A stretch of 64,000 nucleotides of DNA from Phlebopus portentosus (Eukaryota; Basidiomycota; Agaricomycetes; Boletales; Boletinellaceae): the NCBI GenBank assembly GCA_037892935.1, contig JAYXKI010000006.1:1240001-1304000 (forward strand). The letters are read 5' to 3'. How positions within the stretch are numbered: position 1 is the stretch's first letter; every line of letters begins with the position of its first letter. Positions 26,652-52,069 of the stretch are shown in pieces. The position numbers were made by a program, and so were the translations under genes. The notes below the pieces were generated by a model. The model did not search any database. It was not told the DNA's origin and saw only the letters and a program-made list of their open reading frames with translations.

Positions 26652-27413
26652 TTGGTACATATCACACGTGCTGCGCTCCTGGATGCTCGAAGTCACCTCC
26701 CGCACATTGTATCGGGCTTCTTTGCCGATTTCTGGATGAACTGCGCCGTCTTCCCGAAAATGAAGGAGCCAATTGCACCACAGGGTCCGGACAACTACAA
26801 TGAGACGCCATCGCGATGGTCTTCATGGATCACGAGCATCATAGAAGAGTCCGAATGCAATCTTGTGCTCCCTCTCACCAAGGCAAAGCCCAGGAACTCG
26901 CCCCTTTCCTGGCTCGACATTAGTCGACGCGTCCAGGATGGAATCGCCGGCCCGTTCTATCCCCCAGTTTCCCCAATATCTCTGACTAACCATTATATCA
27001 GTATGGAGCGAAGGAAGTCTAAGAGGTTTACCGATACCTTAGCCAACACAGGGCCTATTATCCAGACTCAACTGGCGGCCCGCGCAGTCTCCGGCCGTTC
27101 CTTGGCTACAACAAGTTTCAACAGTCTAAGATTATTCAATTTCTCCTGCGAATCGGGGAAGCCAAAGACCCTGGATCTCGGCATTGTCGAGGATACAATT
27201 ATGCGGGGGAGTCGTGTGAGGATTTTATATTGCGCGTTATTCGAGTTTCTTGTCCGCAACTTACGAGCCAACGCAGATGCGGGGGAGTCGTGTGAGGATC
27301 TTATATTGCGCGTTATTCGAGTTTCTTGTCCGCAACTTACGAGCCAACGCAGATCCCAGCCCGGGAAAGTCGAAAGGCAGAGTAGAGAAAGTCTAGAGAA
27401 CGGCCTCATTTAG
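26652..27413 (+). CDS. Unrecognised 253-codon ORF, possibly a decayed gene
   Basis: Open from ATG 26652 to a stop at 27413. No domain recognised. Residues about 184-234 consist of the two translations of the 76-bp duplication in different frames, which argues that the C-terminal part is not an ancestral protein. Upstream, at 26521-26739, an overlapping frame encodes a different peptide (SPAPEGASSFVVRAHTGTPE). I cannot decide between an orphan gene with introns and chance. Confidence 0.25.
   Translation: MVHITRAALLDARSHLPHIVSGFFADFWMNCAVFPKMKEPIAPQGPDNYNETPSRWSSWITSIIEESECNLVLPLTKAKPRNSPLSWLDISRRVQDGIAGPFYPPVSPISLTNHYISMERRKSKRFTDTLANTGPIIQTQLAARAVSGRSLATTSFNSLRLFNFSCESGKPKTLDLGIVEDTIMRGSRVRILYCALFEFLVRNLRANADAGESCEDLILRVIRVSCPQLTSQRRSQPGKVERQSRESLENGLI
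27201..27352. repeat. Near-identical 76-bp tandem duplication
   Basis: The unit beginning ATGCGGGGGAGTCGTGTGAG starts at 27201 and again at 27277, with essentially one difference (GATTTTATAT versus GATCTTATAT), and the second copy ends at CGCAG followed by ATCCC. The unit is 76 bp, not a multiple of three. Confidence 0.9.
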
Positions 27414-45477: not shown

Positions 45478-46738
45478 TAGGAGGCTGGACGGTACTGGAT
45501 TCCTTCTAGTTCCAGAGCCGCCAGAGTGTCTCGTTCGGCTTAATGTGGATGGAATTGATGTACCTCGGTCGGGAATTCCAGTTCGGGATAGGAGGAAAAG
45601 GGAGAGAAGGAGCTGTTGTCGGTGTAAAACGAATGTGACATACGAACAACGAGGGGTTGTCTGAGCGTTTCCTCTTGTTTTCAGTGCCCACTCTGAGTCG
45701 TACTCTGCACATTGCTGTTCTCTGGTGCAGTAATTGGGGACGAACGGGGGAATGTCGATACCTGAATACCAGTACTAGTGTCGCTGAACGGAAGCTAGCT
45801 CAGTGACCCCGTTCGGCACATGCGGATGGATTGGCAACTTCTTCCTCCGTGTCTGACTACCGATACTCACATCTATTTTCTCTCTTTCTCTATTTACACA
45901 GAGGTTGCTTGTTTCTTCCTTTTTTTTCTGCTTTCTTATTCTTTATCGCACCAAGCTCCGACAATGTTCTCTCTCGACTTATTTGAACGTTCGTCCAGAG
46001 CTCCCAACGAAACAATTTCCATAATAACCGCCTATGTGTGTGCTTTGGACGGTCCCGCAGAGACCTTCTCTGGTCGGCCACGCATGCATATGTGGTTATT
46101 GCGTAAGATCGCAGTCGGTGTGCTACATCGCTGTATAGCGCTCTGCATCTCCTGCTCTTCTGCAATAGAGTGATCATCTTCCTGCATCCAAGACGTAGAG
46201 GCGACATTAATATTGACATTTTTTTCACTGCCGTTAGAGCTCGCGGAGATTATTACTTCTCTTCCTGTCTCTGTCTGTCTGTCTGTCTCTCTCTCTTTTC
46301 TTCCATCGTACGGACGAGTCCCTGTTTTCGTCTTCTTACGTATAATATTATCTGTTCATTGGAGTGGGCGATCAGGATGTGATGTGCTTTCCTCGTCCGA
46401 AGACGCATATGCGTTTATGTATTGTTTCGTATAATCGTGCACGTCTGTCTGTACATACGTAATACACAACGGTGAAAACAGGTGAAGGCTGTTTTTGCCG
46501 TAACATTATCTTCGGATCCGGTATAGGATTCTTCCGTATCGCTTCTGGATGAGTATGTGCTTCAAAAATAAGTGTGTGCACACTGTATGTATGTATGTAT
46601 GTATATATGCATGTACTCATACAAATCTCACCATTCAATACAAAGAAAACACGCCTGGCTCCCTCAAGTGACTCAAATACACCCAAAGCGTACCGCACAA
46701 AAAAAAATTTACATAGTTAACTAATTACGAAGTTACGT
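45478..46738. other. Converging 3' region with simple repeats
   Basis: 1.26 kb between the cyclophilin stop and the capping-protein stop. CTGT/CT repeats lie at about 46266-46300 and a GTAT tetranucleotide repeat at about 46585-46603. Short frames around 45820-46230 have no motif. No gene supported. Confidence 0.5.
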
Positions 46739-51323: not shown

Positions 51324-52069
51324 CTACAGGATCTTACCATCGTGAATACGGAAGGTTTCGCCAAGCGATGCCCCCGCACTTCCCTGTCTATCTCGCGGAC
51401 GAAACGTTTCACCTAATGGTGCGCCAGCACTTCCCTGTCTGTCTCTGGGGCGAAAGTTCTCGCCCAGAGGTGCACCTGCGCTACCTTGTCTGTCTCTGGA
51501 TCGAAGAGTTTCGCCTAACGGTGCACCAGCGTCTCCTTGCCTATCTCGCGGGCGGAAAGTCTCACCCAATGGTGCACCAGCGTTACCTTGTCTGTCCCTA
51601 GGTCGGAAAGTTTCACCTAAGGGCGCGCCGTCGACACCTGGAAGAGTATTCTATAATGCTGTCAAAATGCAACAGGAGTGAGGAACGCACCGTCCCGACC
51701 TCGAAATGTTTCTCCGAGAGGAGCCCCGGCTGAACCTGGAATTCCGGATTTTTATTTCTGCGTCCAAATGGATTTACTTAACCATACCTCGTCTTGAACG
51801 ACGGAAAGTTTCGCCTAGTGGAGCTCCGTCGACGCCTGCAGACCATTTCAAGGACTCTGAATAAATGGCAATCAATGCGGACTTACCATCTCTCACTTTG
51901 AACGTCTCTCCGTGCGATGCTCCATCAACCACTATCGATAGCTTTAGCTCTTGCCGGGAGATGAGACAGTGCCGAGGCACTCACCACTATGTTCCGGCTT
52001 TTCAATAGGCATAGGAATAGCAAGGATGGACGCGAAGCAAGCGAAGAATACGAGATGAAGGACAAGCAT
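51324..52069 (-). CDS. Secreted repeat-peptide precursor with nine GAPLGETFR repeats
   Basis: Five exons give 178 residues: 51985-52069, 51887-51931, 51788-51835, 51691-51735 and 51324-51637, with introns of 51-53 nt. Exon 1 encodes a signal peptide, MLVLHLVFFACFASILA, followed by IPMPIEKPEHS. Exons 2, 3 and 4 each encode one repeat: VVDGASHGETFKVRD, GVDGAPLGETFRRSRR, GSAGAPLGETFRGRD. Exon 5 encodes six more, consensus GxAGAPLGETFRPRDRQ, ending FRIHDGKIL. All internal introns are phase 1 at the Gly that opens a repeat, so exons are interchangeable units. Codons for the invariant Gly and Leu vary between repeats while the peptide does not. The layout is like fungal processed-peptide precursors, but only one repeat ends in a dibasic RR; the rest end RD or RDRQ. 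I know no named family for it. An unprocessed repetitive surface protein is an alternative. Confidence 0.85.
51327..51637 (-). repeat. Six tandem 51-nt coding repeats in the last exon
   Basis: Each 51-nt unit encodes 17 residues, G-x-A/D-G-A-P-L-G-E-T-F-R-x-R-D-R-Q. Units differ mostly at wobble positions; the core Leu codon is TTA, TTG, TTA, CTG, TTA and CTT in order. The last unit is altered (GASLGETFRIHDGKIL) and ends the protein. Confidence 0.9.

What the first reader, a model, noticed from the sequence alone, without database searches (positions are those of the whole stretch)
51324..52069. Unnamed secreted repeat-peptide precursor: signal peptide plus nine GAPLGETFR units
Seen directly: a 17-residue signal sequence and nine copies of a 15-17 residue motif in one spliced 178-residue frame with five consistent GT..AG exons. 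The core G-A-P-L-G-E-T-F-R is kept while its codons vary (Leu: CTA, CTC, TTA, TTG, CTG, CTT), which points to selection on the peptide, not just recent DNA amplification. Known: fungal repeat precursors are cut into signalling or toxic peptides, often by Kex2. Here only one linker is dibasic, so an unusual protease or no cleavage is expected. This is my best candidate for an undescribed system.
Basis: partly seen in the sequence, partly recalled or inferred. Interest (0 to 1): 0.88.

Follow-up and report, generated by a model that had tools for sequence, protein, structure and literature searches.

The report
Secreted fungal repeat-peptide precursor, GETFRxR family
A mushroom-type fungus carries a gene for a secreted protein made of nine copies of one short, strongly conserved peptide; related proteins, one of them in Fomitiporia, keep the same peptide but mostly lack the paired-basic cutting sites by which such peptide precursors are usually found, so this kind may have been overlooked.

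Summary
On the minus strand, 52069-51324, five exons give a 178-residue protein with a hydrophobic N-terminus and nine GAPLGETFR-like units. Units 2-9 differ mostly at synonymous sites (pS 0.83, pN 0.056): the peptide is under purifying selection. No other copy was found in the 38.4 Mb genome. Seven relatives pass E 1e-3; one is annotated in Fomitiporia mediterranea and shares the signal-peptide region. Over 29 units the constant part is P-L-G-E-T-F-[RK]-x-R, usually followed by D, with x free. [quoted passage not shown] Best reading: a KEP-like precursor cut after the last Arg of F-[RK]-x-R, releasing linear peptides of about 15-17 residues. Cleavage, product and function are inferred. The nearest UstYa match is about 344 kb away, against a dikaritin. 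New variant of a known kind; three text searches for its strings or locus tag found no paper.

The parts
51985..52069 (-). Exon 1: putative signal peptide (codons 1-17, 52069-52019) and start of pro-region
   Evidence: splice; hydrophobicity and alignment with the Fomitiporia protein
51932..51984 (-). Intron 1 (53 nt, GTGAGT..TAG)
51887..51931 (-). Exon 2: unit 1, VVDGASHGETFKVRDG
51836..51886 (-). Intron 2 (51 nt, GTAAGT..CAG)
51788..51835 (-). Exon 3: unit 2, VDGAPLGETFRRSRRG, the only unit with dibasic sites in this protein
51736..51787 (-). Intron 3 (52 nt, GTATGG..CAG)
51691..51735 (-). Exon 4: unit 3, SAGAPLGETFRGRDG
51638..51690 (-). Intron 4 (53 nt, GTGCGT..CAG)
51324..51637 (-). Exon 5: units 4-9 (51-nt period, RQG linkers) and stop codon
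51324..52069 (-). Whole gene: secreted repeat-peptide precursor, 178 aa, no other copy found in this genome

Best explanation
A secreted precursor of a linear repeat peptide. The N-terminus sends the protein into the secretory pathway (inferred from sequence and from the Fomitiporia relative). A kexin-type or yapsin-type protease cuts after the last Arg of F-[RK]-x-R (inferred), giving peptides of about 15-17 residues such as DRQGSAGAPLGETFRPR; a Kex1-type carboxypeptidase would then trim the terminal Arg (inferred from known KEP processing). The conserved PLGETF[RK] segment is the active part, recognised outside the cell as a signal or in biotic interaction (inferred). Shown here: gene structure in the DNA, purifying selection on the peptide, conservation of the core and of F-[RK]-x-R in relatives, no predicted fold, no other copy found, no UstYa match within about 344 kb.
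For: Gene and nine units; pN/pS 0.067 over units 2-9. Relatives found before they entered a query alignment: P0001 E 6.8e-14; P0002 2.6e-28, P0003 1.6e-17, P0004 1.3e-11, P0005 1.1e-4 (whose query held P0001); P0006 7.6e-5, P0007 5.2e-4 (whose query held P0001-P0003 and P0005); P0008 at 0.75 is marginal. Over 29 units from these 8 and the window protein: L 28, G 28, E 27, T 28, F 28, [RK] 29, Arg at the last position 27; the residue between is of 12 kinds (P0003 and P0004 are near-duplicates and both counted). Linkers between the last Arg and the next G are 4-6 residues in tandem arrays and 26 in Fomitiporia, whose second unit ends the annotated protein at FRAR (linkers counted by eye). Signal-peptide region shared with Fomitiporia: 1 of 20000 shuffles as good, 103 of 20000 when the hydrophobic and following parts are shuffled apart. 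AlphaFold of the exon-5 array from a single sequence: mean pLDDT 52.9, no helix of 4 or strand of 3 residues. Kexin P-domain matches at 2 loci, one DPPIV/Ste13-type locus. In Pichia-expressed C. cinerea KEPs several products appeared to be cut after single Arg (PMC9769878, Results parts 1-2 of 3 and Discussion read).
Against: No RNA or peptide data. Phe is not among the P4 residues listed for Kex2 (Leu or other aliphatics), and of the 27 units with the Arg only 14 have Lys, Pro or Glu at x, which are on that paper's P2 list, while 13 have residues not on it (PMC8528282 section 3; counts). The last window unit has His in place of the Arg. The same conservation would follow if FRxR were part of an uncleaved binding motif. 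The function is a guess from the class; six kep knockouts in C. cinerea showed no axenic phenotype (PMC9769878).
Confidence: 0.6

Rival explanations
1. An uncleaved, disordered repeat protein of the wall or extracellular matrix, in which each GAPLGETFRxR unit is a binding site and the number of units sets avidity.
For: Only one dibasic linker; tandem array without predicted fold; FRxRD could be a charged binding motif (inference).
Against: Fomitiporia as annotated has only two units with 26 unlike residues between them, the second at the very C-terminus; linkers vary while the core is fixed. No Pfam family passed its cut-off.
Confidence: 0.22
2. A canonical KEP cut at dibasic sites, with most sites lost in this species.
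For: Four of 29 units carry KR (P0001 once, P0003 twice, P0004 once) and the window has FRRSRR.
Against: The last Arg is kept in 27 of 29 units while the residue before it is free; if dibasic sites were simply decaying, that Arg should not be kept. P0005 has no dibasic site after its signal peptide.
Confidence: 0.1
3. A RiPP precursor whose core is cyclised or otherwise modified, of the dikaritin kind.
For: Signal peptide plus repeated cores is the ustiloxin-precursor layout (PMC7329392 abstract); the genome has 14 UstYa matches, counted exon by exon.
Against: Nearest UstYa match is about 344 kb away on the same contig; the window protein has no Tyr; seven of ten flanking frames match families with no known modifying role for peptides, three match none.
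Confidence: 0.06
4. Not a functional gene: a minisatellite with a chance open frame.
For: The 51-nt period leaves other frames open too, including a 111-codon antisense frame, whose pN/pS is also low, 0.20.
Against: The sense frame is lower (0.082 on the same four units), third positions vary most, and relatives keep the same peptide.
Confidence: 0.02

Closest known systems
KEX2-processed repeat proteins (KEPs; Le Marquer 2019 PMC6339444, Umemura 2020 PMC7329392, Vogt 2022 PMC9769878)
   Same: Small secreted protein with many near-identical short units; probable release of linear peptides
   Different: Units are not separated by KR/RR/KK at three or more places; linkers carry F-[RK]-x-R instead, so the published filters would pass it over
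Dikaritin precursors (ustiloxin, phomopsin type)
   Same: Signal peptide plus repeated cores
   Different: No UstYa match within about 344 kb; no Tyr in this protein
Ustilago maydis Rep1 (described in PMC8528282 section 3)
   Same: Basidiomycete secreted repeat protein
   Different: Rep1 is reported there as Kex2-processed into amyloid-like fibrils; no sequence comparison with Rep1 was made here
FOMMEDRAFT_151783, Fomitiporia mediterranea (P0005, uncharacterised)
   Same: Same signal-peptide region, first unit GPPLGQTFKLRDG and a second unit GAPLGETFRAR
   Different: Two units rather than nine as annotated, with a 26-residue spacer; its gene model was not checked

Membership tests
KEP (Le Marquer 2019 / Umemura 2020 definitions) | N-terminal ER signal peptide (SignalP) | tested here: inconclusive
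   17-residue hydrophobic start, mean KD 2.49, and similarity to the Fomitiporia N-terminus; SignalP not available
KEP (Le Marquer 2019 / Umemura 2020 definitions) | At least three similar repeats | tested here: met
   nine units
KEP (Le Marquer 2019 / Umemura 2020 definitions) | Repeats separated by KR, RR, KK (or RK) sites: at least four fragments (Le Marquer) or three repeats between sites (Umemura) | tested here: not met
   two RR sites, both in one linker, three fragments; none in P0005 after the signal peptide; definitions. The authors' own programs were not run
KEP | Release of peptides by kexin | not testable with these tools
   needs peptidomics
Dikaritin / UstYa RiPP | UstYa (DUF3328) gene close by (on average 3.09 genes away, PMC7329392 abstract) | tested here: not met
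   nearest PF11807 match C6:1636117, about 344 kb from the gene
Dikaritin / UstYa RiPP | Cyclised product | not testable with these tools
   needs mass spectrometry

The most novel reading that the evidence does not exclude
GETFRxR is a conserved peptide hormone of Hymenochaetales and perhaps other Agaricomycetes, matured by one of the kexin paralogues with an [RK]-x-R specificity, so that a class of fungal signalling peptides lies outside dibasic-based catalogues.
Probability: 0.25. Interest if true: 0.7.

Novelty: new variant of a known kind. Interest (0 to 1): 0.5.

Why it matters
The two KEP surveys read here select on dibasic sites. A family whose peptide is conserved between genomes but whose linkers are F-[RK]-x-R would be missed by such filters, which suggests that the known set of fungal secreted peptides is incomplete. 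The core is short and can be synthesised, so activity and receptor questions are directly testable.

Tried and rejected
Other copies: own-genome searches with a first, too narrow pattern (none, not even this gene), exon 5, a degenerate core pattern with up to 2 mismatches (8 matches, all inside this gene; 1 in the reversed-pattern control), P0005, P0002 and P0007 (nothing, with no positive control) gave only this locus. Single 15-residue exons are near the detection limit (the gene's own score E 0.17 and 0.62), so a diverged one-unit copy cannot be excluded.

Families: Pfam gave only a sub-threshold DUF4813 match (14.5 bits against 27.6); NCBIfam nothing for the window protein and 3 of 8 relatives; Pfam nothing for 6 of 8 relatives; PDB best E 0.93; Rfam nothing at the gathering score in 40000-64000. 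PHROGs and PADLOC were not run.

Relatives: only the 7995 and 7991 candidates sharing most words were scored, so the set of relatives is a lower bound. Introns: the only direct repeat in 51638-51984 is a 20-nt pair at 75% at exon borders. Splicing onward from the donor-like end of exon 5 adds no unit at any of 13 acceptors. Frame control: on four exon-5 units pN/pS is 0.082 in the sense frame, 0.20 and 5.8 in two antisense frames (the latter with a stop); the script failed on the other three frames.

Literature: no paper text with GAPLGETF, with any of DGAPLG, PLGETF and four GETFRxR strings, or with FOMMEDRAFT_151783. Broader searches (20 of 30 listed; 12 of 1027 listed; 2 and 7 listed) showed no description of this family in titles and abstract starts. 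Supplements could not be searched, so a supplementary table may list it. The most widespread basidiomycete KEP type of Umemura 2020 (G-1, in genera including Fomitiporia) is described there as high in Tyr, unlike this; its logo is a figure and was not seen.

Papers: PMC9769878 abstract, Results parts 1-2 of 3, Discussion, passages; PMC6339444 abstract and sections 10, 15, 24; PMC7329392 abstract, sections 6 and 13, passages; PMC8528282 section 3 and passages; PMC2515848 passages only.

Full report
Observation. The minus strand of 52069-51324 was spliced with GT..AG introns of 51-53 nt into a 178-residue frame with nine units. Exons 2, 3 and 4 each carry one unit between phase-1 borders; exon 5 carries six, with a 51-nt period. 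The antisense strand also has an open frame because the period is a multiple of three. The sense frame is the constrained one: pS 0.83 against pN 0.056 for units 2-9; pN/pS 0.12 for all nine units and 0.069 for five 17-codon exon-5 repeats. On four exon-5 units the sense ratio is 0.082 and that of the open antisense frame 0.20; one antisense frame gave 5.8 and three frames could not be computed. By columns, 9 of 9 third positions and 4 of 18 others vary in units 2-9. Synonymous differences are near saturation, so the units look like old copies rather than a recent amplification (inference).

Copy number. In the 38.4 Mb genome the exon-5 protein finds only this gene, and the degenerate core pattern finds eight places, all in this gene. 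Searches with P0005 and P0002 return only this locus; P0007 returned nothing.

Relatives. The whole protein found one relative in a database of about 5.8 billion sequences clustered at 90% (P0001, E 6.8e-14). A short alignment query added P0002-P0005 (E 2.6e-28 to 1.1e-4), a third query P0006, P0007 and the marginal P0008 (E 7.6e-5, 5.2e-4 and 0.75). Searches scored only a capped candidate list. P0005 is an uncharacterised protein of Fomitiporia mediterranea MF3/22, order Hymenochaetales. It starts MLAHYVVFLASFALALAAPAPV.. against MLVLHLVFFACFASILAIPMPI.. here; 1 of 20000 shuffles scored as high, 103 of 20000 when the hydrophobic part and the rest were shuffled apart. It has two units, the second ending the protein at FRAR. 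The other seven come from unnamed assemblies; some appear to read through introns, and from their translations the exon borders look to be in the same phase as here, but their DNA was not seen (inference). The window's own species is not known to me; Hymenochaetales is a guess from P0005.

Anatomy of the unit. Over 29 units in 9 sequences (listed, counted): P 26, L 28, G 28, E 27, T 28, F 28, then R or K in 29, any residue (E 6, P 4, K 4, A 4, V 3 and seven others), R in 27, D or E in 22. The two exceptions for the last Arg are both in the window protein (FRRSRR and FRIHD). P0003 and P0004 share near-identical units and both are counted; P0003's first unit is cut at its left end. From the last Arg to the next unit's G there are 4-6 residues in the tandem arrays and 26 in Fomitiporia (by eye).

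Mechanism. A fixed core, free linkers, a fixed Arg three residues after a fixed Phe, a unit at the very C-terminus ending in that Arg, and no predicted fold (mean pLDDT 52.9 for 51333-51650, which is the exon-5 array plus four intron codons, from a single sequence) are what a precursor of released linear peptides would show. The likely cut is after F-[RK]-x-R. [quoted passage not shown] Of 27 units with the Arg, 14 have Lys, Pro or Glu at P2 and 13 have residues not on that list; Phe at P4 is not on it. So a kexin paralogue or a yapsin (a monobasic-specific protease by a title in the reference list of PMC2515848, passages only) is as likely as standard Kex2. C. cinerea KEPs expressed in Pichia gave several products that appear cut after single Arg (PMC9769878). 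This genome has kexin P-domain matches at two loci (three matches) and DPPIV-type matches at one; both counts are lower bounds.

Neighbours. Of ten flanking open frames scanned with Pfam, seven passed E 0.001: mitochondrial carrier, lysine methyltransferase, MFS transporter (below its curated cut-off), proteasomal ATPase (two frames), a TFIIS-like helical bundle and F-actin capping protein; three had no match. The genome has 14 UstYa matches, exon by exon; the nearest is about 344 kb away. Nothing found suggests a modifying cluster, but frames without a family cannot be judged.

Comparison. Both KEP surveys define the class by dibasic sites (Le Marquer 2019; Umemura 2020). Cut at KR or RR this protein yields three fragments and P0005 one, so neither would be listed under those rules; I could not open the supplementary tables to confirm. 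It works like a KEP but fails the formal test, hence 'new variant of a known kind'. It also fails the UstYa-neighbour test for dikaritins.

Limits. No transcript, peptide or fungal genome collection was available; cleavage, product and function are inferred.

Noticed in passing
51324-51340 (minus strand): The stop codon of exon 5 sits inside GATG|GTAAGATCCTGTAG, which resembles the exon-intron borders of the other unit exons; it may be the remains of a lost intron, i.e. the gene may once have had further unit exons.
   Followed up: partly
own genome, contig C4 at 1528145, 1567030 and 1625559: Three UstYa matches with identical scores and lengths, about 39 and 59 kb apart, among 14 matches in the genome: possibly a recently duplicated region.
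   Followed up: no
27201-27354: A 76-bp tandem duplication, 98% alike.
   Followed up: no
46584-46615: A TGTA microsatellite of eight copies.
   Followed up: no
51346-51681 (plus strand): A 111-codon antisense stop-free frame, explained by the 51-nt period of the array.
   Followed up: partly
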